Assembly: GCA_000955795.1 (NCBI GenBank) | Contig: JYOB01000016.1 | Coordinates: 459,908-523,907 of the forward strand | Direction of reading: 5' to 3' | From: Burkholderiaceae bacterium 26 | Lineage (GTDB): Bacteria; Pseudomonadota; Gammaproteobacteria; Burkholderiales; Burkholderiaceae | DNA: 64,000 bases | In this document: positions 3,554 through 64,000 of the stretch, piece by piece | Numbering within the stretch: the stretch's first letter is position 1 | Layout of the letters: the number at the start of each line of letters is the position of its first letter | Position numbers and translations under genes: made by a program | The notes under the pieces: model-generated | Databases searched by the model: none | Told to the model about the DNA's origin: nothing | The model's input: the letters and a program-made list of their open reading frames with translations, nothing else

Positions 3554-4045
3554 ATGGACACGCTGCTGTTCCTGTTTGGCGAAGGCAAGGATCTCAACCC
3601 GCTGCAAACCGCGATGCGCGCGGTGGTCGTGTTCGCCATCGGCTTGGCGCTGGTGCGCCTGTCGGGCCGGCGCTCGTTCGGGCAGCGCGCGCCGTTCGAC
3701 TTCGTCGTCGCCGTGTTGCTAGGGGCGACGTTGAGTCGCGCGATTGTCGGCGCGTCCCCGTTTGTGGCCACGCTGTCGGCGTCGCTCGCGCTGGTGGCCG
3801 TGCATCGCCTGCTGGGGTGGGCGTGCGTGCGGCTGCCGAAGCTGGACCGGCTCATCGCCGGCCGCGAGCGCGAGGTCTATCGCGAAGGGCGTTTCGACCA
3901 AGGCCAGATGGATGCAGCGCTCATCACCGTGGGCGACTTGCAAGAGAGCGTGCGCCAGACCTTGGGCTCGCGCACGCTGGACGATGTGGAGGCCGCCATT
4001 CTGGAGCGCAACGGACAGGTCAGCCTGATCCGCAAGCGCCGCTGA
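3554..4045 (+). CDS. DUF421 domain membrane protein (YetF-like)
   Basis: Small protein of 163 residues with two to three N-terminal hydrophobic segments and a soluble C-terminal part. RLSGRRSFGQRAPFDFVVAV is typical of the DUF421/YetF family. The C-terminal half (EREVYREGRFDQ, LQESVRQ) is the usual cytoplasmic domain. Biochemical function is unknown; members of the family in spores are germinant-complex-related, but that does not transfer here. GGGAGG lies just upstream of the ATG. The next gene starts 35 bases downstream. Confidence 0.8.
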   Translation: MDTLLFLFGEGKDLNPLQTAMRAVVVFAIGLALVRLSGRRSFGQRAPFDFVVAVLLGATLSRAIVGASPFVATLSASLALVAVHRLLGWACVRLPKLDRLIAGREREVYREGRFDQGQMDAALITVGDLQESVRQTLGSRTLDDVEAAILERNGQVSLIRKRR

Positions 4046-4080
4046 TTTTGCACACCCGCACCCGCACACCGGAGCCGACC

Positions 4081-4347
4081 ATGCGAGACAAGCAACAGAA
4101 GGAAAACCGAGACGCCAAACAACGCAAGGCCGATTTGGAACAAGCCGAATCGCATCGCAAACCAGGCGACCGGCCGGCCAGTGCGGAAGTGGGCCGCACC
4201 GGCAGCACGGCACCCAAGCCGCAAAGCCGGCACGACACGCTGCGCCGCATGCGCCAGGGCGAGGTGGCGCCCGGCATCAAGCCCGACAAGCTGCACGACC
4301 CCGGAGACCAGACCCCCGACGCTTCACCCACAGATAACCGCAGCTGA
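4081..4347 (+). CDS. Small hydrophilic protein, function unknown
   Basis: An 88-residue, strongly charged protein (MRDKQQKENRDAKQRKADLE...) rich in Lys, Arg, Glu, Gln and Pro and without hydrophobic segments; it is probably disordered. It ends seven bases before the GTG proposed for the NRAMP-type carrier, so the two may be cotranscribed. I recognise no family. It could be a stress-type hydrophilic protein, but that is a guess from composition only. Confidence 0.5.
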   Translation: MRDKQQKENRDAKQRKADLEQAESHRKPGDRPASAEVGRTGSTAPKPQSRHDTLRRMRQGEVAPGIKPDKLHDPGDQTPDASPTDNRS

Positions 4348-4354
4348 GCGCAAC

Positions 4355-5626
4355 GTGCCTGCCGCAGACGACGCCCCGTGGTACCGCCGGTTGGGGCCCG
4401 GCCTGATCACCGGCGCCGCCGATGACGATCCGAGCGGGATCGCCACCTATGCGCAGGCCGGCGCGCAGATGGGTACCGGCATGCTATGGACGCTATTGCT
4501 GACGCTGCCCCTGATGATTTCCATCCAGCTCGTCAGCGCCCGCTTGGGGCGTGTGTCTGGCCGGGGCGTGGTCGCCAACATCCGGCGGCATCAGTCGCCG
4601 TGGCTCGCCTATGCGTTTGTGGCGCTGGTGACGCTTGCCAACATCATCAACGTGGGTGCCGATATCGCGGCCATGGGCGACAGCGTGCGCCTGCTTCTGG
4701 GGGGGGCGACAGCGTGGTATGCATGCCTGTTTGCCGTCTTCACGCTCGTGCTGCAAGTCTGGATGCCGTACCGCCGCTATGCGCGCTATCTGCAATGGAC
4801 TGCGCTGTCACTGCTGGCCTATGTGGCCACGGCGTTTGTCGTGAAAGTGGACTGGGCGCACGCGCTGCACGACACCGTGGTGCCCCGGCTGCATTGGTCG
4901 AAAGACTATGCAATGACGCTGGTGGCGGTGTTTGGCACCACCATCAGCCCCTATCTGTTTGTGTGGCAGGCCGCAGGCGAAGTCGAAGAGACGCGGCTGG
5001 CCGAAGACGAAGCGCCGCTCAAGAAAGCGCCGTGGCAGGCGAAGGATCAGCTCGCACGCATCCGCATCGACACCACGGTCGGGATGGTGGTGTCGGCGCT
5101 GATCGCCTTCTGCATCATGCTGACGGCCGCTTACGCACTGCACACGCACGGCATCACGCAAATCGAGACCTGCGCACAGGCCGCTGAAGCGCTCAAGCCC
5201 GTGGCCGGGCGATTTGCGCAAACGTTGTTTGCCGTGGGCGTGATCGGCACGGGGCTGCTGGCGGTGCCGGTGCTGGCGGGCTCCGCCGCCTATGCCGCTG
5301 CCGAGGCCTTCCAGTGGCACAGCAGCCTGGAGGCGAAGGTGCACCGCGCGCCCAAGTTCTACCTGTTCCTGGCGCTCGTGATGGCGGTGGCCACGGTGAT
5401 GGTGTTCTTGCCCATCGAGCCTTTCAAGCTGCTGTATTGGGCTGCGGTGCTCAATGGCGTGGCGGCTACGCCCGTCATGGTGATGCTGCAGTTGATGTCG
5501 CGCCGCAAGGCCGTGATGGGGCCGTTCCGCAGCTCCCGGCTGCTGCATGGCACGGCGTGGCTGGCGACGCTGAGCATGTGCGCCAGTACGCTGCTGTTCT
5601 TCGTGCTGGCCGCGCGCGGTTCGTAA
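4355..5626 (+). CDS. NRAMP-family metal ion transporter, non-canonical motif variant
   Basis: Inner-membrane carrier of about 423 residues with roughly eleven helices. The first helix has DDDPSG (residues 23-28) where Mn/Fe NRAMPs have DPGN. The equivalent of the helix-6 MPH motif reads GTTISPYLFVWQ, so the metal-coordinating Met and the His are absent. The family is clear from the GPGLITGAADDDPSG start and the overall helix pattern. The substrate may therefore not be Mn2+ and could be another divalent ion. I start at the GTG at 4355, since the reading frame further upstream overlaps the preceding gene and lacks family similarity. Confidence 0.8.
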   Translation: MPAADDAPWYRRLGPGLITGAADDDPSGIATYAQAGAQMGTGMLWTLLLTLPLMISIQLVSARLGRVSGRGVVANIRRHQSPWLAYAFVALVTLANIINVGADIAAMGDSVRLLLGGATAWYACLFAVFTLVLQVWMPYRRYARYLQWTALSLLAYVATAFVVKVDWAHALHDTVVPRLHWSKDYAMTLVAVFGTTISPYLFVWQAAGEVEETRLAEDEAPLKKAPWQAKDQLARIRIDTTVGMVVSALIAFCIMLTAAYALHTHGITQIETCAQAAEALKPVAGRFAQTLFAVGVIGTGLLAVPVLAGSAAYAAAEAFQWHSSLEAKVHRAPKFYLFLALVMAVATVMVFLPIEPFKLLYWAAVLNGVAATPVMVMLQLMSRRKAVMGPFRSSRLLHGTAWLATLSMCASTLLFFVLAARGS

Positions 5627-5707
5627 AACGGCAAGCACCGGGGTTGCGTGCCTTGGGCGAAGCCGTGCAGCAGGCGCGGTGTCGTGTTGCCCAACAAGGG
5701 GTCAATC

Positions 5708-5815
5708 ATGAAAGCTGTCGTATTCCACGGCGTCGGCGACGTCCGCCTGGAAGACGTGCCCGTGGTGCCGCGCTCCACATCGCAGATCAGCCCGCCCGTC
5801 TGCCGGCTTGCATGA
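5708..5815 (+). pseudogene. 5' remnant of a zinc-dependent alcohol dehydrogenase
   Basis: The ATG at 5708 opens MKAVVFHGVGDVRLEDVP, the typical first strand of zinc-dependent alcohol dehydrogenases. Similarity stops after about 19 codons and the frame ends at 5815 after 35 codons. No zinc-binding or nucleotide-binding part follows before the next gene at 6018. This looks like the scar of a deletion that removed the rest of the gene. The surrounding 390-base gap holds nothing else I can identify. Confidence 0.6.
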
Positions 5816-6017
5816 AGGCGCGGCCCCAACTGGGACGGTGCAGGAGATGGGCTCGTCACCAAGCGTGGAATCCGGCCAGTTTTGCAACGCGAGGCGCGAC
5901 GCAAGCCATGTTCCACGCCAGCCCGGGCTCTGGCGCCCAGGTGGCCCCGGAATCGCGCGATAATGCAGGACTTTCCTGCTGTTTTCCTGCCGTCCCCCGC
6001 CTTTCTGCTGCCCTGCC

Positions 6018-7253
6018 ATGACCGGACTGACCACCGCCCTCCTGCACGCCGACCGTGAAGCCGGCGTCGAGCACTACGCCATCCACAAGCCGCTTCACAC
6101 GTCCACCACGTACGGCTATACCGATACGCGCGAGCTGATCGACGTGTTCCAGGGCAAGCCCGGCTATACCTACGCGCGCCAGGGCAACCCGACCACGGCC
6201 GCACTGGAAGCCAAGATCACGATGATGGAAGCAGGCGTGGCCACCGCGTGCTTCGCCACCGGCATGGCGGCCATCATGGCGGTGTTTTCGACCATGCTGC
6301 GCGCGGGCGACCACGTGGTCTCCAGCGCCTTCCTGTTCGGCAACACCAACAGCGTGTTCGAAACGCTGCGCAACCTCGGCGTGGAAGTGACGTTCGTCGA
6401 TGCCACGTCTGCCCAGGCCGTGGCCGACGCTGTGCAGCCAAATACACGCCTCGTCTTCGTGGAAACCATTGCCAACCCGCGCACCCAGGTGGCGGATCTG
6501 AAGGGCATTGGCGATGTCTGCAAGGCACGCGGCCTGATCTACGTGGTCGATGGCACGATGACCTCGCCGTGGCTGTTCCGCGCGCGCGATGCGCAGGCGA
6601 GCCTGGTGGTGCATTCGCTGTCCAAGTACATCGGCGGGCACGGCAACGCGCTGGGCGGCGCGGTGGTGGATACCGGGCTGTTCGACTGGGCGGCGTATCC
6701 GAACATCTATCCGGCATACCGCAAGGCCAAGCCGGAAATGCAGGGCATCCAGCAGATTCGCAAGAAGGGCCTGCGCGACCAGGGCGCGACGTTGATTGCC
6801 GATGCCGCGCACCGCATTGCCGTGGGGGCCGAAACAATGGCGCTGCGCATTGACCGGACCTGCAGCAACGCCCTGGCGCTGGCCCGCACGCTGGCTGCGC
6901 ACCCGAAGGTGGCACGCGTGTATTACCCCGGCCTGCCGGAGCACCCTGAGCATGCCCGCGCCACAGAGCTCTTCCGTCACTACGGCGGCCTGCTGAGCTT
7001 CGAACTGGTGGACGGGGCAGACTACGTCGACATGCTCGACCACCTGCGCTACGCCGTGCGCGCTACGCATCTGGGCGATACACGCACCCTGGTGATTCCG
7101 GTCGCCCCGACCATCTACTGGGAAATGGGCGCGGAGCGCCGCGCGTCGATGGGCATTGCGGATTCGTTGGTCCGCGTGTCGGTTGGCATTGAAGATGAGG
7201 CCGATTTGGTGGCGGATTTCACGCAGGCGCTGGACGCTACGGCCATCGGCTGA
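6018..7253 (+). CDS. Cystathionine gamma-synthase/methionine gamma-lyase family PLP enzyme
   Basis: A 411-residue fold-type I PLP enzyme of the Cys/Met metabolism family. TYARQGNPT (about residues 51-59) holds the phosphate-binding Tyr and Arg, VVDGT has the pyridine-nitrogen Asp178, and HSLSKYIGGHG places the Schiff-base lysine at K203. The family makes or breaks C-S bonds at the gamma carbon of Met or Cys derivatives. The exact reaction (gamma-synthase, gamma-lyase or sulfhydrylase) cannot be told by eye. No methionine genes are near. A strong terminator follows at 7283-7318. Confidence 0.85.
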   Translation: MTGLTTALLHADREAGVEHYAIHKPLHTSTTYGYTDTRELIDVFQGKPGYTYARQGNPTTAALEAKITMMEAGVATACFATGMAAIMAVFSTMLRAGDHVVSSAFLFGNTNSVFETLRNLGVEVTFVDATSAQAVADAVQPNTRLVFVETIANPRTQVADLKGIGDVCKARGLIYVVDGTMTSPWLFRARDAQASLVVHSLSKYIGGHGNALGGAVVDTGLFDWAAYPNIYPAYRKAKPEMQGIQQIRKKGLRDQGATLIADAAHRIAVGAETMALRIDRTCSNALALARTLAAHPKVARVYYPGLPEHPEHARATELFRHYGGLLSFELVDGADYVDMLDHLRYAVRATHLGDTRTLVIPVAPTIYWEMGAERRASMGIADSLVRVSVGIEDEADLVADFTQALDATAIG

Positions 7254-7282
7254 GCCGACACCGTTCTGGCTTTGCAGTTTGA

Positions 7283-7318
7283 AGGCCCGCCCACTCGCAC
7301 AGAGTGGCGGGCCTTTTT
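7283..7318 (+). terminator. Rho-independent terminator of the PLP-enzyme gene
   Basis: AGGCCCGCC and GGCGGGCCT form the base of a long GC stem extended by ACTC/GAGT around a short GCACA loop, with one bulged C. It is followed by TTTTT on the plus strand. It lies 30 bases after the stop at 7253 and before the convergent porin stop at 7328. The minus side lacks a comparable T run. Confidence 0.85.
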
Positions 7319-7327
7319 CATGGCGTG

Positions 7328-8431
7328 TCAGAACACATGCCGGATGCCGACCATCGTGCCGAGCTGGTTTCCCCCGGCAGCCGGTGCTGCGCCCGTGGCA
7401 GCACTGTCCACCGACAGTGCCAGGCTGCCGCGGTTGTCGATATAGCCGACCGTGGCATACACCGACGAGCGCTTGCTGAACGCGTAGCTGGCGCGCACCG
7501 CCCCCAGCCATGCCTTGTTGGCGCTGTTGTGGAACCGCAGGTGGAACACCTCGCCCGAGAGCGTGAGTGCCGGTGTCAGGTCGTACGCGGCGCCCGCATA
7601 GAAGAGGTCGCTGCGCGGCGTGGTGGATGCGCCATTGCGGCGGCCGATCCAGCCCAGGCCGACCTTCGCGCGGTCGAACAGCGCATAGCCGCCCAACGCC
7701 ATGCGCTCATCCTTGAGCGAGCTTGACGTCAACCCGGCAAACGCGCCGGGCCCGCCGCGCTGGGAATCATATGCGGCGGAAACGCCCCACTTGCCGGTCT
7801 CGTACATCAGCAACGCAGACCACTCGCGACAGGCGCGCGTGTCGGCAGGGTTTTCGCCTGCGCAGTTGGTGCCGGACGGGCTGGGGCCCGCGTTGACGGC
7901 ATCGCGGCCAAAGCTGTAGGTGGCACCGACCGTGAACCCGCCGAACTTGCCCTTGTAGGCAATGGCGTTGTCGGCGCGGGCGTTGGGCAGGTAGGTGTCG
8001 AGCGAGCTGGAACCGTACGCATTGGGGCCGAGCAGGTCGGTATCGAGCGAAGCCCAGAACAGCATCGTGTACTGACGGCCGAAGCTGATTTGCCCCCAGT
8101 TGTTGGACAGGCCCACCCACGCCTGCCGACCAAACAGGCGGCCGCCCTGGTTGCTCGTGCCGCTGTCGGGTGCGAAGCCCGATTCCAGTGTGAACAGCGC
8201 CTTGGCGCCGCCGCCCAGGTCTTCGGTGCCGCGCAGGCCCCAGCGCGAGGGCACCGTGCCGCTCAGGTTGGGCATGCGCACGACGCTATTGCCTGCCGAG
8301 CCGATGCGGTTGACGTATTCGACGCCCGTATCGATGACGCCGTACAGCGTCACGGACTGGGCTGCTGATTGTGCGGCGGCAAGCGCGGGCGCTGCCAGCA
8401 GCAAGGGAAACGCCAGGTGGCGCAGGTTCAT
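7328..8431 (-). CDS. Outer-membrane porin (Porin_4), upstream paralogue of 1368-2504
   Basis: Predicted 367-residue trimeric porin. The signal peptide MNLRHLAFPLLLAAPALAAA is followed by a mature start QSVTLYGVIDTGVEYVN, and the C-terminus is MVGIRHVF. It shares blocks such as SRWGLRGTEDLG, GRLFGRQAWVGLS and AYKGKFGGFTVGATYSFG with the porin at 1368-2504, so the two are recent paralogues. The ATG at 8431 is chosen because GGAGGAG lies just upstream and a signal peptide begins there; the open frame runs further upstream without either. It is next to, and on the same strand as, the salicylate genes. Confidence 0.9.
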   Translation of the reverse strand: MNLRHLAFPLLLAAPALAAAQSAAQSVTLYGVIDTGVEYVNRIGSAGNSVVRMPNLSGTVPSRWGLRGTEDLGGGAKALFTLESGFAPDSGTSNQGGRLFGRQAWVGLSNNWGQISFGRQYTMLFWASLDTDLLGPNAYGSSSLDTYLPNARADNAIAYKGKFGGFTVGATYSFGRDAVNAGPSPSGTNCAGENPADTRACREWSALLMYETGKWGVSAAYDSQRGGPGAFAGLTSSSLKDERMALGGYALFDRAKVGLGWIGRRNGASTTPRSDLFYAGAAYDLTPALTLSGEVFHLRFHNSANKAWLGAVRASYAFSKRSSVYATVGYIDNRGSLALSVDSAATGAAPAAGGNQLGTMVGIRHVF

Positions 8432-8477
8432 GAGGTCTCCTCCGTTGTGATTGTTTTTCAGCGATGCGTGACGTGCA

Positions 8478-9119
8478 TCAGGCGGCGAAATCTGGTTGTT
8501 GTGCCGGCGCGGCAGCCTTGAAGGCCGGATGCGCACTGGCGTGTTGGTAGATCGCCATCGCGCGCTCGTACTGCCCCAGCGAACACCCCATGCGCAGCGC
8601 GTTGGCAACCTGCGGCACCAGCGCCACGTCGGCCAGCGTTGGCGCATCTCCAAAGCACCATGGGCCGGTGCCGTAGCGCGCAAGCAAGCGCTCGACGGTC
8701 GCCATGCCTTCGTCGATCCAATGGCGATACCACGCGTCCTTCTGCTCGGGCGTGACCTTCAGCACGTCTTGCAGATAGCGCAGCACGCGCAGGTTGTTGA
8801 CGGGGTGGATGTCGCACGCGATGGCGTTGGCCAGTTCCAGCACGCGTGCGCGCTGCAATGGTTCGAGCGGAATCAGTCGTGGCTCGGGGTGGCGCGCATC
8901 GAGGTAATCGATGATCGCGAGCGACTGGCTCAATTGCATCTCGCCGTCGATGAGCGCCGGTACGCCCGCCGACGGGTTGATGTGCTCCACATAGCCTGCC
9001 GCGCGATGCTCGCCGGTGCGGATGTTCACCGGCAGCGTCTCGTACGGCAGCCCTTTGAGCGCCAGCGCAATGCGCACCCGATACGACGTCGAGCTGTTGA
9101 AGAAGCTGTAGAGCTGCAT
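8478..9119 (-). CDS. nagL: Maleylpyruvate isomerase, zeta-class GST
   Basis: A 213-residue zeta-class glutathione transferase. The N-terminal SSTSYRVRIALALKG is the glutathione-binding active-site motif of maleylacetoacetate/maleylpyruvate isomerases, and NPSAGVPALIDG and QSLAIIDYLD complete the thioredoxin half. In this operon it should isomerise maleylpyruvate to fumarylpyruvate with glutathione as cofactor. It is the last gene of the nag order and follows nagK by 11 bases. The same fold serves tyrosine breakdown (maiA), but the neighbours argue for the gentisate route. Confidence 0.88.
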   Translation of the reverse strand: MQLYSFFNSSTSYRVRIALALKGLPYETLPVNIRTGEHRAAGYVEHINPSAGVPALIDGEMQLSQSLAIIDYLDARHPEPRLIPLEPLQRARVLELANAIACDIHPVNNLRVLRYLQDVLKVTPEQKDAWYRHWIDEGMATVERLLARYGTGPWCFGDAPTLADVALVPQVANALRMGCSLGQYERAMAIYQHASAHPAFKAAAPAQQPDFAA

Positions 9120-56437: not shown

Positions 56438-56983
56438 ATGTTGTTGAAAGTGGGCGATCTCGCCAAACGCTGCGGCCTCTCGGTGCGCATGCTGCATCAC
56501 TACGACGCCATCGGCCTGCTCACGCCTTCGGCCCGTTCCGACAGCGGCTACCGGCTGTATGACAAGGCTGACGTCGCCCGTCTGCACCAGATTCAGGCGT
56601 TGCGGCGCTTCGGCATGTCACTAGCCGATGTCGGGGCTTTCCTGGCCAATCCGGACATCCCCCTGACCACGATCGTGGAACGGCAGATTGCGATGCTCGA
56701 TCAGCAGATCACGCAAGCCAGCGTGCTGCGCGATCGGCTGTCGCGGCTGCACGGCCAGCTCGTGCGCAAGGAAGAGCCCGAATTGACCGAGTGGCTCACA
56801 ACCTTGGAATGGATGACCATGAAGAGCGGTGTTGGGTTGTTTACTTACAGATTCGTCGCCGCACCGTTGACTGACGTTCGGGTGTCCCAACATCAATTGG
56901 CAAACCTTGGGAAAAGAACCTGTAACAGGTGGGGATCTTTTAACGGTCGACGATCCGGGCGATGTGCTCCCCCCTGCTATTGA
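56438..56983 (+). pseudogene. Truncated TipA-like MerR family regulator
   Basis: The first 128 codons are a normal MerR regulator: KVGDLAKRCGLSVRMLHHYD, then the coiled-coil helix and WLTTLEWMTM. In TipA-like MerR proteins this last motif leads into an effector domain of about 120 further residues. Here similarity stops at about 56822, and the frame runs on for some 50 unrelated codons (SGVGLFTYRF...) to a stop. DNA binding may survive without the effector domain. The break marks the left edge of an acquired or rearranged segment. Confidence 0.75.
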
Positions 56984-57226
56984 GCCGCCTGGAGGTGTTT
57001 GACAGCCCAGGGCCGAGGCCTGAGTAGCAGCTTCAGGTCATTCTCGCGAAGGCCTGGCGCTTACGACTAGCAACAGGTCGCATCGAACTGGATACGTGAA
57101 CAATCAACTCCGGCAATCCCTCGCGACCCTGTAATGGGCTGCCCTCGCCAATGGCGTTTGACGCATGGTCGTGCGTCAGGATGTGGGAACCGTCTATCAG
57201 AGGGAAAATGGTGGGGCTACGCTGCC
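56822..57226. other. Junction sequence of unknown origin
   Basis: This stretch separates the broken MerR gene from the qatC fragment. A minus-strand frame at 57033-57296 is open for 87 codons but resembles no family I know and overlaps the qatC remnant. It may be debris of a mobile element or of an inactivated gene. Confidence 0.4.
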
Positions 57227-57631
57227 CGTACCAAAGGGGAGATGATGGCTGAGTGCCTTGACCAAGCCCAATTGGCAGATCTGGCCGGCATGTCAACGAG
57301 CTGTGGCCGTTTCGCTGTGTTTGGACTGCGGCACTGTGGTCGGTGCGTGCCTTGCATGGTCCGCCGTTCAGCTTTTCTTCGGTCCGGCATCACCGATACC
57401 ACTGCCATCTATGTTCACAACGATCTGAAAGCCGCGCAGCCGGATAAGGGACCGAATGACGTGGCCGCAGTCGCGACTGCTGTGGTGAAAGTCGAGGACG
57501 ATGGCATTCGTGCCTTCACTGCGGGGCAGTTTGCCTTTGCGGAGCGGTCTAGCCGCGTTGCGTTTGAGGGCGTGGTCGAGCGAGGACTGCAAGAATTGGG
57601 TGTCCTACTGCGCTCGCACGGTGTCCTGTGA
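57227..57631 (+). pseudogene. qatC: 3' fragment of a QueC-like qatC gene
   Basis: About 130 codons starting near RTKGEMMAEC match the C-terminal end of QatC, the QueC-like protein of the QatABCD defence system. The QueC-type zinc cysteine cluster SCGRF...HCGRCVPCMVRR is kept. The PP-loop ATPase domain that should precede it is missing, as are qatA and qatB. The frame ends in TGA that overlaps the qatD GTG (GTGA), the tight coupling seen in intact operons. Confidence 0.7.
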
Positions 57632-58362
57632 TTGACTTCCACTCACATCTTGACCTCTATCCCGACGGCCTAACACTGGCACACGAGGTCAATCGCCGCA
57701 ACGAGTTTACCCTTGTCGTCACGACCAGCCCACGCGCCTTTCATGCAACCTCGCGAGTATTTTGCGGGTTGCGAAACATCCACGTTGGCCTTGGCCTTCA
57801 TCCCGAAGTTGCGGAGGCAAAGGCCAGTGAGCTGGACGCTCTGGTTGCAGGAGTCAAGGACGCGAAATTTATCGGTGAAGTTGGACTCGATGGCTCGCGA
57901 AGATTTCGAAAGTCCATTGAGCTACAGGAGCACATTTTTCAAGCAGTCCTCGCTGAATGTGGCCGACAAGGCGGCAGAATCGTGAGCATCCACTCCCGCG
58001 GAGCGGTGCAGCGAACTATCGAAACGTTGGCTAGAGCACATGACGTAGGCTATCCAGTTCTGCACTGGTTTTCCGGAGGAGTCACCGAGCTTCGAATGGC
58101 CGCACGCCTCGGCTGCTGGTTCAGCGTCGGGCCTGCCATGCTTGCCGGCGAAAAGGGCCGCAGCTTGTTGAGCCACATGCCATTGGACCGCGTCCTTCCA
58201 GAGACTGATGGACCATTTGCTACGGAGGGAGGCGTTCCCCTGAAGCCCTGGGATGCGTGGAAAGTGTGCGCCACGCTTTCAGAGGTGTGGGCGCTGCCTC
58301 GCACCGCTGTTGAAGAACAACTGAGAACCAATCTTAACCGTCTACTTGGCAGTCAAACCTGA
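57628..58362 (+). CDS. qatD: TatD-like nuclease of a QatABCD anti-phage system
   Basis: A 244-residue TatD-family metal hydrolase. Metal ligands H5, H7 (DFHSHLD), E84 (GEVGLD), H122 (IHSRGA), H146 (LHWFSG) and D194 (ETDGPF) are all present, so it appears intact. It lies directly behind and overlaps a QatC C-terminal fragment, which points to QatD rather than housekeeping TatD. Without QatA-C it is probably non-functional in defence. It starts with GTG at 57628. The region looks less GC-rich than its surroundings, which suggests transfer. Confidence 0.75.
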   Translation: MIDFHSHLDLYPDGLTLAHEVNRRNEFTLVVTTSPRAFHATSRVFCGLRNIHVGLGLHPEVAEAKASELDALVAGVKDAKFIGEVGLDGSRRFRKSIELQEHIFQAVLAECGRQGGRIVSIHSRGAVQRTIETLARAHDVGYPVLHWFSGGVTELRMAARLGCWFSVGPAMLAGEKGRSLLSHMPLDRVLPETDGPFATEGGVPLKPWDAWKVCATLSEVWALPRTAVEEQLRTNLNRLLGSQT

Positions 58363-58446
58363 CGTGAAAGGGGTGGCTGATGGGACCTCCTGGCGTTGAT
58401 CGGATTCGATGCTAGAGTGATTCCGGCGCCGTTTCGGGAGCGCGTT

Positions 58447-59616
58447 ATGCCTTACAACAAAGGTCCGGACAGGCTTGGTGCAGCCTGGGCTGTCGATATG
58501 CAGGCCCATTTGCCAGAGAGGCGCTTGGCGGAAGCAACTCGCTTGATGGCTTGGGCGCGCGACCGTAAAACCGGTGCCCCACGCTACATTCTTGAGCTCG
58601 ACGAAAATCACCGTGGTGCCCACTGCGACTGCGAGTGTGTTAGTTGCGGCGGCGCACTGATCGCGGTAAATGCTGCCCGCGAAACCTACCTGCGGCGGCC
58701 GCACTTCCGCCATGCCGCTGGCACCGAAAAGCATTTGTGCCTCGTACTGGCGGCACGCGCTGCCCTTCTGGCGACACTGGAGAGCACAGGCTACCTAGAC
58801 CTGCCGAGCCATCGGCGCACGGCGCGCATCACCGGCCTCTCCGGCAGCTTTTATGACGCGTGGGTCGACGCGCCGTCCGAGCGAGTGCACATCGCGTCCT
58901 GTTCGTTTTCAGATGAGGCTGCGGCGATCGTCACGCTCGACGATGGCCGGGAACTGCACGTCGTTCTCGTAGGCAGCCACGCGAGCGGTACGGACGGTGC
59001 GCAGCATGCTGCGATCGAGGTGCTGGTCGACGATGTGGCGCTGGCCGGCATGAGTCCGGAGGAGTTGCGCCACCGTACGCGTCTGCTCGTGAGCAGGGCG
59101 CAGTGGTGCGGCCACTGGCAAGACAATGTCCTACTTGATTCTGCGATGAATCAAGCTCGCGCGCGAGCTGCGGATGCGTTCGACCTAGTCGACGGAGAGA
59201 CTGGCCTGCCCGACGCTGCGACACCACAAGAGATTCGTGAAACGCTGCTGCACAGGAAGGCCAAGGAGATCCTCGAGCGCGAAAAGCGTCTCATGGTTCC
59301 GCAGATGAGCGTGACCGAGCGCTCGCAGCAATGGCCGCAGGAAGCCACTACCCGCAAGTGCCGCGACGCGCAGGCGCTGGAGCTTCAGTCAGTCGCACTT
59401 GAACAGCGCATGGGTCGGATCATCCCGGATGTTACCGCCGTCACGGTAGTCAGGCGATGGGGTGTCGGCGCTGCGGCACGCAGTGTAGATCCAAGTCCGC
59501 CGCCTGGCCTGCTGCACGGTAGGGTAGTACACCTCACTGTCGGTTCCACTCCTCGGGCCTTGAGGATGACCGACCGCTTGGGATTGCAGATTCAACCGGT
59601 CGATGCAACACACTAG
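58447..59616 (+). pseudogene. CoiA-like PD-(D/E)xK nuclease gene, C-terminally disrupted
   Basis: A 389-codon frame. The N-terminal zinc domain has CECVSCGGAL (C64, C67) and RRPHFRHAAG, typical of CoiA-like proteins. A later stretch ETLLHRKAKEILEREKRLMVP fits their nuclease helix, and RIIPDVT fits the PD of a PD-(D/E)xK site. The E-x-K strand expected next does not appear; from about 59450 the frame turns to unrelated sequence. The active site thus seems lost. It follows qatD by 84 bases and may belong to the same defence island. Confidence 0.55.
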
Positions 59617-59900
59617 AGACTGCACACCTCGGCCAGTTGCAGTCAGGTTATTCGCGGCACATGGGTGAAGACGGTTGAACGTTGCATCGTTCGAACGCCC
59701 GCCATCCACATTGTCGTGTGCCGTTGCGATGTCACTCGGCTGATGTCTTCTAGTTGCTCTTGTGAGCATCGAAACTCGGGAAATATACCTTTCGCAGTGC
59801 GAGAATCAGAGCATTAACGGCTAGGGTGAGAGGCATTGAGTGTTGTGATTGCGCCTGTCATGTCAACTCCCGTTTCTGCTATTGCTTCGCATTGATCCGA

Positions 59901-60653
59901 TCAGAGCGCCTTTCCAGCACCTTCACGGCAGGCAGAGGAGATTGCGGCCAGCATAGCGCTCAACATGGCATCGCAGCTGTGTACCCCCGACAGGGCAGTT
60001 TTGCGATTGAACAAAAAGAACGGCACCTCGGATACGGCCGCAATGCCGGCCGGCTTTCGTGGGCGCCCTCGCCGACTCTTGGAATGCCGTGGGTGCTCCG
60101 GGTTCATGCCAAGCAACGATTCCGCAATGGCGGCGCTAACCCCAACGTCGGCCGCCAGTCGTCGCAGTACCGTTGTGCATCCGATGTTCTCCGCGTCGAT
60201 GAAATAAGCCTTGAATATCTGATCAATCAGTAGCTCAGCACGTATCAGTGTGCTCTGCCTAGCGACGTGTTCAACCAATCGGTGTGCGGCATCCGTATTG
60301 GGCAGGATGCGGATACGTGAGAAATCGAAGGCGATGCCCAAGGCTTTCCCCGCCTGTTCCACTTGCACGCGGCGGGCCGCTGCAGCCATGCGGCTGCCTG
60401 TACGCGTTAGATAAAGTGAGTGATAGGGCAATCCTTCTGGCGGGGTATCCGGCAGCACGGGCCGACCGTGCCAACGCACATCGACGCTCACATCGGGTCG
60501 GATTTTTTCTAACTGCTGGATCGCCAAACGCAAGCTGCGTTTGCCCACCATGCTCCACGGACAAATGAAATCAAAGCCCACATCGACGACCAGCGTTTGC
60601 CGATCGCGCGGGATTGGATTTCCCTCCAGCGGGAGAAGATCAGAGCGGCTCAT
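59901..60653 (-). CDS. DsbA family thioredoxin-fold oxidoreductase (FrnE-like)
   Basis: A 250-residue cytoplasmic DsbA/FrnE-type protein. The active-site segment reads FDFICPWSMVGKRSL, so the second Cys of CPWC is a Ser (C31-P-W-S34). SEVPFFLFN holds the cis-Pro loop. With one Cys it could be a monothiol reductase or glutathione-type isomerase rather than an oxidase. No ribosome site is visible before the ATG at 60653. It is the last gene of the disrupted region. Confidence 0.75.
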   Translation of the reverse strand: MSRSDLLPLEGNPIPRDRQTLVVDVGFDFICPWSMVGKRSLRLAIQQLEKIRPDVSVDVRWHGRPVLPDTPPEGLPYHSLYLTRTGSRMAAAARRVQVEQAGKALGIAFDFSRIRILPNTDAAHRLVEHVARQSTLIRAELLIDQIFKAYFIDAENIGCTTVLRRLAADVGVSAAIAESLLGMNPEHPRHSKSRRGRPRKPAGIAAVSEVPFFLFNRKTALSGVHSCDAMLSAMLAAISSACREGAGKAL

Positions 60654-60908
60654 AACTCAGACAGGTGCTCTGTATAAGCGGTCGATGGATGCATTGACGC
60701 GTCGCTGTTGTCGCGGACCAATGCATCAATGTGCAGAGAGTGTCTAAGGCGGCGTGCTCTGTATTTCTGAACAAATCCAACGGGCGCTAGTGATGCACGA
60801 CGACGATATCCCCGGGCGTCCGTATCCAGAATCGTTCAGATTTGGTTGATTGATCGGCGCCTATCCTGAAGCTGCTGTAAACGGCATCGCTTGACTACCT
60901 TTCCGTTG

Positions 60909-60941
60909 GCCTGGCACCTGAAGAGGTGGCCAGGCTTTTTT
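60909..60941 (+). terminator. Orphan plus-strand rho-independent terminator
   Basis: GCCTGGCACCT and AGGTGGCCAGGC pair with one bulge around GAAG, followed by TTTTTT. No plus-strand gene lies between qat/CoiA debris and this site. A short frame ending in stop at about 60894 precedes it, possibly the lost 3' end of the broken MerR gene. Confidence 0.75.
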
Positions 60942-61030
60942 CATTGAGCGCGATGGAGGGGCGGCCCGGCGACCGCACTCCAGCCTCTTATTGGCCCGCC
61001 CGCCATATGGGGGCTTGCTGTTTTCAGAAC

Positions 61031-61063
61031 GAAAAATGCCCGACGACGCAAGCGCCGCCGGGC
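61031..61063 (-). terminator. Minus-strand terminator without an assigned gene
   Basis: On the minus strand GCCCGGCGGCG pairs with CGTCGTCGGGC around CTTG, using two G-U pairs, and is followed by TTTTT. Read on the plus strand the stem has A-C mismatches. The polarity is therefore clear. No gene is visible upstream on the minus strand within 400 bases. Confidence 0.65.
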
Positions 61064-61379
61064 TCAAGGAAACGATGAAGCCTGGACACACAAGTCCGAG
61101 GCAGCCGAAGCGTAGCGACGACGGGGCGATCAGAATCTGAACGAATCTGACTCCGTCACAACGACACCACAGCATGACTTCGTGGTGCGCCGCACTTTTT
61201 GCATTTCGCGCTTTCCTATCGCAGAAAGCCGCTTTTTTCCGCCAACGCCCAATCTCACGCCATTTGGGGTTTTCGCCTGGATGGGCGGCAACGTTTGCGT
61301 TGGTAACACTCCCAAGCGCGCTAATCAGGCGCCTCAGGGAAAGCCCCAGCACTTCCTTTTCAATCCGTTTGCTAACCTA

Positions 61380-61393
61380 GTTAAGCGCTTAAC
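61380..61393. promoter_or_regulatory. LacI-family operator before the porin gene
   Basis: GTTAAGCGCTTAAC is a perfect 14-base palindrome with the central CG typical of LacI/GalR-type operators. It lies 85 bases upstream of the porin ATG. A near copy precedes the ABC binding-protein gene at 62702. Confidence 0.7.
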
Positions 61394-61477
61394 AACGACG
61401 CCAAGGCAAACAAGAGCCGAGAACGTGCGTGAAAGCCGTCGGAACACCAATTCTGGTGTATTTGGAGGAAGAGAAAA

Positions 61478-62605
61478 ATGAAACGTAAATATTTGGCCGC
61501 GCTGTTGGCCATGGGGCTGGCGGGCGGCGCGTATGCGCAGTCCAACGTCACTTTGTGGGGGCGTGTGGGCGGTGGCGTCGAGTACCTCAGCAACATCAAG
61601 ACAGCCAACGGCTCGGGCTCGAAGCTGGCGGAAGGCAGCCAGTGGGGTACCAGCATTTGGGGCATGAAGGGCACCGAAGAGCTGGGCGGCGGTAATCAGG
61701 CGTTGTTCTACTTGGAAGGTGCGTTTGCGTCTGACACGGGCAACCAGGGTGGCGGCAAGCTGTTCCAGCGCGGTGCATGGGTGGGGCTGAAGAACAACGA
61801 CTACGGCTTCCTGCGTCTGGGCCAGGGCAACACCATCAACAACTACATCTGGCGCTTCGATCCGTTCCTGTTGGAAGACTACTCGGCGTCTACGTTCACC
61901 AACTACCGCAACGGTTCAAAGCTGGCGAACGGCATCCGCTACGAGTCGCCCAATTTTGGCGGTTTTGAGTTCGGGGCCCAGTTGAACCTGGGTGAAAGCC
62001 CGAACGGCTTCCGCAATGGGCCGCAGGACTCGGTGCTGAGCAATATCGGTATGGCGTATGGCGTCTCGGTCGCTTATGTTCAGCCGACGTGGGAAGTGCG
62101 GGCGCTGTATGACGAGGTGAACAACCAGAACGGCAAGCTGGACAACCTGTTCATCGCGTCGCGTGAGTTTTTCCTCGGTGCGAAGGTGCAGATCACGCCG
62201 CGGTTGCTGTCTCAAAGCGGCTGGGCCCACTACACGGCACCGGATACGGCGCCTGGCCTGTCGCGCGTGGCGAACCATTTCTGGACTGGCTTGACCTACG
62301 ATGTGACGCCGCGCCTCCACGCGCAGGGTGCTGTGTACTACATGAAGGTGGGCCAAGGCCAGTGGACGGCCGATCACGATGGTGCGGGTCATGGCCTCAT
62401 GCTCAATCTGGGCGCCATGTATGACCTGTCCAAGCGCACGTTCCTGTACGCCACTGTGGCGCACATGAAGAACAGCGCGAACGCCAACTTCTCGGTGCGA
62501 CCCACCGCGCCCGGTTATGGCGACCCGGTCAACGGTAACGGCGCTTCGCCCGCTCCGGGCAGGTCGCAGACCGGCGCCTACGCCGGCATCATGCATAACT
62601 TCTAA
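61478..62605 (+). CDS. Outer-membrane porin (Porin_4) of a sugar-uptake locus
   Basis: A 375-residue porin. The signal peptide MKRKYLAALLAMGLAGGAYA ends at AQS, followed by NVTLWGRVGGGVEYLSN and the terminal strand AYAGIMHNF. It is more distant from the two porins at the window start. GGAGGAAGAG lies ahead of the ATG. The shared LacI-type palindrome with the following ABC gene suggests joint control and a role in carbohydrate entry. Confidence 0.9.
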   Translation: MKRKYLAALLAMGLAGGAYAQSNVTLWGRVGGGVEYLSNIKTANGSGSKLAEGSQWGTSIWGMKGTEELGGGNQALFYLEGAFASDTGNQGGGKLFQRGAWVGLKNNDYGFLRLGQGNTINNYIWRFDPFLLEDYSASTFTNYRNGSKLANGIRYESPNFGGFEFGAQLNLGESPNGFRNGPQDSVLSNIGMAYGVSVAYVQPTWEVRALYDEVNNQNGKLDNLFIASREFFLGAKVQITPRLLSQSGWAHYTAPDTAPGLSRVANHFWTGLTYDVTPRLHAQGAVYYMKVGQGQWTADHDGAGHGLMLNLGAMYDLSKRTFLYATVAHMKNSANANFSVRPTAPGYGDPVNGNGASPAPGRSQTGAYAGIMHNF

Positions 62606-62701
62606 GCCCGCGCTTGCCGCTCAAGGCGATCTGCTCGGGGTAAATCCCTAGATTCTCAACATTGATTGACCTTGTCTCAGGCGCCATACTAAGTAAAACA
62701 A

Positions 62702-62715
62702 GTTAAGCGCTTACC
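62702..62715. promoter_or_regulatory. LacI-family operator before the sugar-binding protein gene
   Basis: GTTAAGCGCTTACC differs from the 61380 palindrome by one base of fourteen. It lies 82 bases before the binding-protein ATG. Two near-identical boxes at two neighbouring promoters support one shared LacI-type regulator, not encoded in the window. Confidence 0.7.
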
Positions 62716-62733
62716 AAAATCAAAAGTAGGCCA

Positions 62734-62770
62734 CCTGAATCACCGATCCTTAGATGTCCGGTGATTCAGG
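62734..62770. promoter_or_regulatory. 12-bp inverted repeat in the binding-protein leader
   Basis: CCTGAATCACCG and CGGTGATTCAGG are perfect 12-base arms around 13 bases, ending 26 bases before the ATG. No T run follows, so it is not a plain terminator. It may be an mRNA hairpin near the ribosome site or a second operator. Confidence 0.6.
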
Positions 62771-62796
62771 CCTCGAGTCCCATCGTGGAGGAAGAC

Positions 62797-64000
62797 ATGC
62801 AGTGTCGTTACAAGAAAATTCTCGCCGGCGGTTTGCTGGCAGCGACCGCAGTAGCTGCGCAGGCAGCCGTCGTTGAGCTCAATGTGAGCGCTTGGAAGGG
62901 CGGCGCAGCCGAGCCGGCTGCCATGCCGGAGCTGATCGCCAAGTTCGAGAAGGAAAACCCGGATATCAAGATCAAGTTCGACTACATCGCCCGCAATGAC
63001 ACGACGACGATCATGTCGTCGCGCTTGCAGGGCGGCGCTGCGCCGGACGTGATGATGGTGGACCGCCCGCTCATGCGTCAGTGGGCTGCCGCAGGCCAGC
63101 TCATGGACCTGAGCACCGACCCCACCATCCAGAAGCTGGCGCCCGACGTGAAGCCGCTGGCGCAGATTGGCGGCAAGTACTACATGGTGCCGATGGAAGT
63201 GGTGGGCATTGGCCTGTTTGCCAACGAGACGCTGCTCAAGAAAGCTGGCGTGGAGCGCGTGCCGACCAACATCAGCGAGATGAAGGCGGCTTGCACGAAG
63301 CTGCGCGCGGCCAACATCACGCCACTGCTCTTGCCGGCCAAGGACGGCTGGGCGCCCGCCATGCTGGCCCTGACCATGGGCCTTGCCCCCAGCGTGAAAG
63401 CGAACCCGTCATTCGTCAGCGACGTTGTGGCTGGCAAACAGAAGTTCTCTTCCAACCCGAACTTCAAGCAGGCCATCGGTGCGCTGAAAGAACTCGCGGA
63501 CGCCCACTGCTATGACCCGAAACTGAACGTCGGTATCGACCCGTGGGGTCTGGGCCTGACGGAGTTCACCGCTGGCCGTGTCGCGATGATGCCGCAGGGC
63601 GCCTGGAGCATCCAGAAGTTCACTGTGAACGGCAAGCCCGCAGTCGATTTCGTCTTCGCGCCGTTCCCGGGGCTCGACAGCGGGAAGGCTGCTGGCCTGG
63701 ACTTGCTCGGTACGGCATGGGCGATCAACGCAGCGGCGAAGCAACCGGCCGCGGCCAAGCGTTGGCTGCAGTTCTGGGCCAAGGAAGAGAACCTGGGCAA
63801 GTTCCTGGCAGCGGATGCGGCGTTCAGCCCGTTCGCGAACAGCCAGTACGCGGGTCCGGCATCGGGGCGTCTGTATGCAGAGGCGCGCAAGGCAGGCAAC
63901 ACGGTGCCGCATCCGAAGGGCGATTTCTCCGCAGCGTTCATCCAGGAAATGCAGAAGAGCATGGCCGGCTATCTCCTGAACATCAATCAGGATCAAGGTG
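62797..64000 (+). CDS. ABC sugar transporter periplasmic binding protein (partial, runs past window end)
   Basis: At least 401 codons without a stop before the window ends. The signal peptide is MQCRYKKILAGGLLAATAVAA; the mature part has ELNVSAWKGGAAEPAAM, APDVMMVDRPLM, KYYMVPMEVVGIGLFANETL and EFTAGRVAMMPQGAWS, the SBP_bac_1 pattern of carbohydrate uptake systems. GGAGG lies five bases before the ATG. A shared palindrome with the porin gene points to coregulation. The permease and ATPase genes probably lie beyond 64000. Confidence 0.88.
   Translation, partial: MQCRYKKILAGGLLAATAVAAQAAVVELNVSAWKGGAAEPAAMPELIAKFEKENPDIKIKFDYIARNDTTTIMSSRLQGGAAPDVMMVDRPLMRQWAAAGQLMDLSTDPTIQKLAPDVKPLAQIGGKYYMVPMEVVGIGLFANETLLKKAGVERVPTNISEMKAACTKLRAANITPLLLPAKDGWAPAMLALTMGLAPSVKANPSFVSDVVAGKQKFSSNPNFKQAIGALKELADAHCYDPKLNVGIDPWGLGLTEFTAGRVAMMPQGAWSIQKFTVNGKPAVDFVFAPFPGLDSGKAAGLDLLGTAWAINAAAKQPAAAKRWLQFWAKEENLGKFLAADAAFSPFANSQYAGPASGRLYAEARKAGNTVPHPKGDFSAAFIQEMQKSMAGYLLNINQDQG

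What the first reader, a model, noticed from the sequence alone, without database searches (positions are those of the whole stretch)
57227..58362. Remnant of a QatABCD anti-phage system: qatC tail plus intact-looking qatD
The segment encodes only the zinc-cysteine end of a QueC-like protein, then a full TatD-like nuclease whose GTG overlaps the qatC stop. This pair is characteristic of Qat. QatA and QatB are absent, the composition looks foreign, and the MerR gene to its left is broken. It may be a decayed defence island or a hotspot whose variants differ between strains.
Basis: partly seen in the sequence, partly recalled or inferred. Interest (0 to 1): 0.75.

Follow-up and report, generated by a model that had tools for sequence, protein, structure and literature searches.

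The report
Broken leftover of Qat defence operon
This stretch is the decayed right half of a known bacterial anti-phage operon (Qat), left behind inside a 34-kb inserted island; one of its four genes is still whole, but the parts known to be needed for defence are gone, so it is most likely an ordinary genomic fossil.

Summary
Window 57218-57631 encodes only the last 137 residues of QatC (428 in the closest relative). Window 57628-58362 is a full-length QatD that passes NCBI's QatD cut-off (284.5 bits against 230). A Ralstonia relative (L007) carries complete qatABCD, and window 57218-59444 aligns to its 3' part without gaps at 94.7%. Against it the window lacks about 5.4 kb: qatA, qatB and the first two thirds of qatC. 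The gene after qatD is truncated too. QatB and the ATP-binding part of QatC were essential in another Qat system (PMC13279940), so defence by this copy is very unlikely. QatD looks undamaged: 48 of 48 strongly conserved positions are kept. The remnant lies 0.4 kb inside the left end of a roughly 34-kb island that broke a MerR-type gene at 56821. A second genome of the genus breaks at the same base. This is a decayed member of a known system; the island context is mildly interesting.

The parts
56438..56821 (+). 5' part of a MerR-type regulator gene, interrupted at 56821 (open frame of 346-398 codons in 9 relatives, 355 in six of them)
   Evidence: Pfam MerR hits; open frames; colinear with 6 fetched relatives up to exactly 56821; 9 of 11 genomes with the gene run through the site unbroken
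56817..56821 (.). CCATG, left copy of a 5-bp direct repeat flanking the roughly 34-kb insertion; the other copy would be at window coordinate 90798, outside the window
   Evidence: left match ends at L108 8384, right match starts at L108 8380
56822..57049 (.). left terminal stretch of the insertion, shared with G011 at the same site (78% identity)
57084..57219 (+). relic of the spacer that in L007 follows the small gene behind the recombinase-type genes (76.8% to L007 2044-2177)
57218..57219 (.). deletion junction: about 5.4 kb present in L007 (2178-7590: qatA, qatB, the first 291 codons of qatC and two small ORFs) is missing; about 2 bp shared at the join
57218..57631 (+). qatC 3' fragment: last 137 codons; keeps the conserved cysteines (zinc site by motif), lacks the SGGxDS ATP motif and the T-T pair
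57628..58362 (+). qatD, full length, 244 aa, TatD-family nuclease, start overlaps qatC stop
58396..59444 (+). 5' part of 'gene E' (499 aa in L007, no Pfam or PADLOC family), truncated at 59444; the ORF runs on in other DNA to 59616
59698..59837 (+). relic of the DNA at and before the start of the PIN-domain gene that follows gene E in L007 (82.8% over 59739-59837)
59901..60653 (-). DsbA-like gene, no DNA match to the L007 locus
61478..64000 (+). start of the catabolic-looking cargo (porin, sugar-binding protein), which continues beyond the window to a recombinase-type operon at 85598-90713
   Evidence: ORF table; Pfam for part of the cargo beyond the window and for the recombinases; the names porin and sugar-binding protein are read from the sequence by eye

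Best explanation
A mobile island with a complete qatABCD-gene E-PIN array like that of L007 existed in an ancestor. At least two deletions then removed what lay before qatA, qatA itself, qatB, the first two thirds of qatC, the end of gene E and nearly all of the PIN gene, leaving a 2.2-kb block with one whole gene, qatD, near the left end of a roughly 34-kb island in a MerR-type gene. Shown: the truncations relative to L007, the colinear order, the insertion point. Inferred: the order of events and the loss of defence. In a studied system QatB is proposed to be modified at its N-terminal glycine by QatC using ATP, with QatA and QatD affecting the phage range; without QatB and the QatC active site this copy should give no protection. 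QatD, if made, would be an orphan TatD-type nuclease.
For: Gap-free 2227-bp match of 57218-59444 to L007 7591-9817, with flanking relics in the same order on both sides. L007 proteins match PADLOC QatA, QatB and QatC over most of their length. No QatB, and no QatA beyond a 25%-identical match, found in the window's genome. The QatC fragment keeps 17 of 52 columns conserved at 95% or more among 77 relatives and lacks the other 35, including SGG-DS. PMC13279940 (abstract and whole Results section read): QatB deletion, mutation of the ATP-binding serines, mutation of T278/T280 and removal of QatC extensions each abolish defence; QatB and QatC alone suffice against lambda. MerR break and 5-bp repeat.
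Against: qatC tail and qatD show few amino-acid changes (dN/dS 0.13 and 0.09 against L007; window branch of qatD 9 synonymous to 2 non-synonymous codon changes) and no frameshift, so decay of qatD itself is not visible. That fits either recent deletion or a retained role. The left relic is only 77% identical to L007 and divergence rises from left to right across most of the block, so L007's island is not the direct ancestor and what was deleted is inferred from a relative.
Confidence: 0.9

Rival explanations
1. qatD is retained under selection as a stand-alone TatD-type nuclease with a role of its own (DNA repair or defence), translated by coupling to the short qatC tail.
For: 48 of 48 strongly conserved QatD columns unchanged; low dN/dS; start and overlap with the qatC stop intact.
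Against: The DNA upstream of qatA is gone and no sigma-70-like promoter was found in 56800-59900 (0 found, mean 0.8 in shuffles, a weak test). Conserved sequence is equally expected if the deletion is recent, and the truncated qatC tail and gene E are conserved too. QatA and QatD together were dispensable against lambda (PMC13279940).
Confidence: 0.07
2. The gene pair is housekeeping QueC/TatD, not Qat.
For: QatD is in the TatD superfamily; full QatC of L007 has a weak Pfam QueC match, below cut-off.
Against: QatD passes the QatD equivalog cut-off while the four other TatD-type models are below theirs; the QatC tail hits QatC models and no Pfam family; relatives sit in full qatABCD operons.
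Confidence: 0.01
3. The truncation is an assembly artefact (collapsed repeat or chimeric join).
For: The assembly has 44 contigs and raw reads could not be seen.
Against: The junction lies inside a 703-kb contig, only one strong place each for QatD and the QatC piece, no qatA or qatB found elsewhere, and a second truncation lies 2.2 kb away.
Confidence: 0.02

Closest known systems
QatABCD anti-phage system (L007, Ralstonia sp. UNC404CL21Col; the P. aeruginosa and E. coli systems of PMC13279940 and PMC13329287)
   Same: QatD full length; C-terminal part of QatC with its conserved cysteines; overlap of qatC stop and qatD start; 94.7% nucleotide identity over 2.2 kb with L007
   Different: No QatA, no QatB, no ATP-binding or substrate part of QatC; not a working system by known requirements
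GInt / SE / Tn554-like islands (PMC5385486 and PMC10214605: abstract and passages seen of each)
   Same: Four-gene operon at one end of the island (405, 539, 623, 152 aa; the first and third with Phage_integrase domains, the small one with a sub-threshold DUF6262 hit), insertion at one base used twice in the genus, short flanking repeat, long cargo
   Different: The operon reads outward to the right border, whereas in GInts and SEs it lies at the left end reading inward; the second protein has no family match; sequence kinship to Gin, SE or Tn554 proteins was not tested

Membership tests
QatABCD system | QatD of the Qat-specific TatD subfamily | tested here: met
   NF041926 284.5 bits, cut-off 230; 48 of 48 conserved columns kept
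QatABCD system | Complete QatC with SGGxDS ATP site, T-T substrate pair and N-terminal extension | tested here: not met
   only the last 137 residues present
QatABCD system | QatC zinc site (four cysteines) | tested here: met
   all five cysteine columns conserved at 95% or more are retained; which four bind zinc is my reading by motif from PMC13279940 and PMC13329287
QatABCD system | QatB with N-terminal MGTS | tested here: not met
   no QatB match in the window's genome using L007 QatB; the query is a QatB by PADLOC
QatABCD system | QatA KAP-family NTPase next to qatB | tested here: not met
   only a 25%-identical match on another contig
QatABCD system | Phage protection | not testable with these tools
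GInt-type island (for the roughly 34-kb host element) | Three integrase-type genes plus one small gene in one operon | tested here: inconclusive
   four consecutive genes of the right sizes; genes 1 and 3 match Phage_integrase, gene 2 matches no Pfam or NCBIfam family, gene 4 is small
GInt-type island (for the roughly 34-kb host element) | Operon at the 5' end with cargo following the small gene | tested here: not met
   in the window's island the small gene is next to the right border; the L007 gene order beside its neighbour does fit
GInt-type island (for the roughly 34-kb host element) | Site-specific insertion with flanking direct imperfect repeats (10-11 nt in the Pseudomonas cases of PMC5385486) | tested here: inconclusive
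   same base used in 2 of 11 genomes, but the repeat found is only 5 bp
GInt-type island (for the roughly 34-kb host element) | Sequence kinship to GinA-GinD | not tested
   no Gin reference sequences were compared

The most novel reading that the evidence does not exclude
The orphan QatD, with or without the translated zinc-binding QatC tail, is kept by selection and still acts as a nuclease against foreign DNA, i.e. a stripped-down Qat derivative riding on a catabolic island.
Probability: 0.05. Interest if true: 0.5.

Novelty: already known. Interest (0 to 1): 0.15.

Why it matters
It is a clean example of how defence cargo is gained and lost: a Ralstonia relative holds the full operon behind a recombinase-type operon, and here the same block is cut down to one whole gene. 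It also warns that a QatD or QatC hit alone does not mean a working Qat system. Of the 80 loci kept (best of 168 with a related QatD), 64 had all four genes as single frames; 8 of the other 16 were cut by contig ends and 8 looked broken or lacking inside.

Tried and rejected
Housekeeping QueC/TatD: rejected. A general link between qat and such recombinase operons: not supported. Of 81 loci searched (L006-L086, flanks of 8 kb at most, many shorter), the window island's four recombinase-operon proteins matched 0, the first two of the L007 island matched 0 (they lie outside L007 as fetched), the third and fourth matched only L007, gene E, PIN and the 542-aa gene matched only L007, and GajA matched 3. 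The window's right-end recombinase proteins and those of the L007 island show no blastp match to each other at E 1e-3. Plasmids: 4 of 72,556 records matched 56822-60700, each by a short piece (two over qatD in Bradyrhizobium, two over 59564-59624 in Cupriavidus). Phages: QatD matched 11 of 50,697 records at 24.5-31.6% identity, no close relative. Promoter scan: 0 sigma-70-like sites, 4 terminator-like sites against a mean of 2.3 in shuffles. In print: the held library gave 0 papers for Ralstonia + Qat + anti-phage, 14 for qatABCD, 13 of them listed, and 47 for QatD or QatC, of which 20 were listed and many of those were chance matches of letters; I saw no description of this remnant in the listings or in what I read, but most listed papers were not opened. 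Searches on three-integrase islands are. Not run: structure prediction, since the QatD assignment is clear.

Full report
Observation. The ORF 57134-57631 contains QatC sequence only from 57218 on; it matches PADLOC QatC over profile positions 305-446 of 453 (E 8.9e-22) and NCBIfam QatC over 257-398 of 398 (73.7 bits, below the full-length cut-off of 280). The next ORF, 57628-58362, starts with GTG overlapping the qatC stop and is a full QatD: PADLOC E 5.3e-77, NCBIfam 284.5 bits over a cut-off of 230, with four other TatD-type models below theirs.

What is missing. In the window's own genome (5.68 Mb, 44 contigs) QatD has one strong place and one distant match at 26%. The QatC family finds this fragment and one weak second place, by inference ordinary QueC. 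L007 QatB finds nothing; the tool notes that an empty answer without a positive control shows nothing by itself. L007 QatA finds only a 25%-identical match on another contig.

Closest complete relative. Three of 16 genomes of the genus have a QatD at E 1e-20 or better: the window's own, G004 at 98% and G015 at 47%. L007 holds a full operon: QatA 4014-5894, QatB 5894-6721 beginning MGTS, QatC 6718-8004, QatD 8001-8735; PADLOC recognises the first three and QatD is 98% identical to the window's. It is followed by gene E (no Pfam or PADLOC family), a PIN-domain gene, a gene without a family and a GajA-like gene. It is preceded by three large genes of 469, 525 and 695 aa and a small one of 135 aa; the first two match recombinase models and the other two match none. 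A gene that I read as ssb lies beside them.

Anatomy of the loss. Window 57218-59444 aligns to L007 7591-9817 without gaps (119 differences in 2227). To its left, 57084-57219 matches L007 2044-2177 (76.8%); to its right, 59739-59837 matches L007 10318-10415 (82.8%), extended to 59698 in a local alignment with a 19-base gap. The order is that of L007. The window thus lacks L007 2178-7590 (about 5.4 kb: qatA, qatB, the first 291 codons of qatC, two small ORFs), has 253 bases of other DNA (59445-59697) in place of L007 9818-10295 (the end of gene E), and nothing of L007 after 10415 was matched in the window. The left join shows about 2 shared bases. Divergence is 3-4 differences per 200 bases around the qatC tail, 6-11 in most of qatD, 15-23 over most of gene E and 8 in its last full bin, so the block may be mosaic.

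Where it sits. Six fetched relatives are colinear with the window up to base 56821 and then depart. The continuation of the relative's MerR gene is found at G000:C8:550705, which would be window coordinate 90798. The insertion is therefore about 34 kb, flanked by CCATG. Of 11 genomes with this MerR gene at E 1e-30 or better (of 16 searched), 9 run through the site unbroken and 2, the window's genome and G011, break at the same base. G011 shares the next 228 window bases at 78%, then has an IS21-like pair (named by eye) and other genes. The island's right end carries a four-gene operon in which genes 1 and 3 have Phage_integrase domains, gene 2 has no family match and gene 4 has a sub-threshold DUF6262 hit. 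Its cargo includes two polysaccharide lyase family 8 genes, an aldose epimerase and a peptidase M66 gene, and what read by eye as a sugar transport and catabolism cluster.

Function. PMC13279940 (abstract and Results section read) shows that QatB and QatC together suffice against phage lambda; that QatB, the QatC ATP-binding serines, the T278/T280 pair and the QatC N- and C-terminal extensions are required; and that QatA and QatD affect range. PMC13329287 (abstract and one section read) describes QatC motifs, among them the SGGxDS loop. The window keeps 17 of 52 strongly conserved QatC columns, among them five cysteines, and lacks the other 35, among them SGG-DS. Defence by this copy is therefore very unlikely; this is inference, not shown.

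Is qatD alive? The 48 columns conserved at 95% or more in the other 81 QatD sequences are unchanged in the window. Against L007, dN/dS is 0.09 for qatD (18 synonymous, 5 non-synonymous), 0.13 for the qatC tail (5, 2) and 0.13 for gene E (58, 27). With L008 as outgroup the window branch of qatD has 9 synonymous and 2 non-synonymous codon changes, L007's branch 6 and 2, with 4 unassigned. Since the truncated qatC tail and gene E are conserved too, the simplest reading is that the deletions are recent. A kept role for QatD is not excluded.

How unusual is it? Of 168 loci with a related QatD the best 80 were kept. Of these 80, 64 have all four genes as single frames covering at least 90% of the profiles; 8 are cut by contig ends and 8 (L009, L016, L018, L026, L034, L052, L060, L073) look split, shortened or lacking inside. 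The profiles were built from the same loci, and draft assemblies can hold sequencing errors. Broken-looking qat operons are thus not rare. Defence cargo on three-integrase islands has been looked at before: PMC10121019 (passages seen) classified GInts among the mobile islands that carry defence systems in E. coli.

Verdict. The finding is correct and ordinary: a degraded member of a known system inside a mobile island.

Noticed in passing
window 56817-64000, continuing to about 90798 on the same contig: A roughly 34-kb island sits in a MerR-type gene, with two polysaccharide lyase 8 genes, an M66 peptidase gene, what looks like a sugar transport cluster, and a recombinase-type operon that reads outward at the right border.
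   Followed up: partly
L122 (G011), MerR site: A second genome of the genus is interrupted at the identical base of the MerR gene with related left-end DNA, followed by an IS21-like pair; the 3' half of MerR was not matched in the 18-kb stretch fetched.
   Followed up: partly
L060 6454-8750: Sphingobium nicotianae has complete QatC and QatD frames but no QatA or QatB detected in the locus held; a relaxase-like gene (by eye) lies upstream.
   Followed up: partly
L007 14043-16094: A GajA-like gene (PADLOC E 1.4e-206) lies downstream of qatABCD in the Ralstonia relative; whether a GajB follows is unknown, as the locus ends soon after.
   Followed up: no
window 59564-59624: A short stretch after the truncated gene E matches two Cupriavidus sp. 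EM10 replicons at 84% and 92% (one looked at: an unannotated gap on a plasmid), and 27 of its bases match L010 8873-8899, just after the qatD there; possibly part of a small repeat element.
   Followed up: partly
island ends, window 56840-56846 and about 90772-90778 beyond the window: The word TTTACTT lies 18-19 bases inside both ends in inverted orientation (by eye); not tested against chance.
   Followed up: no
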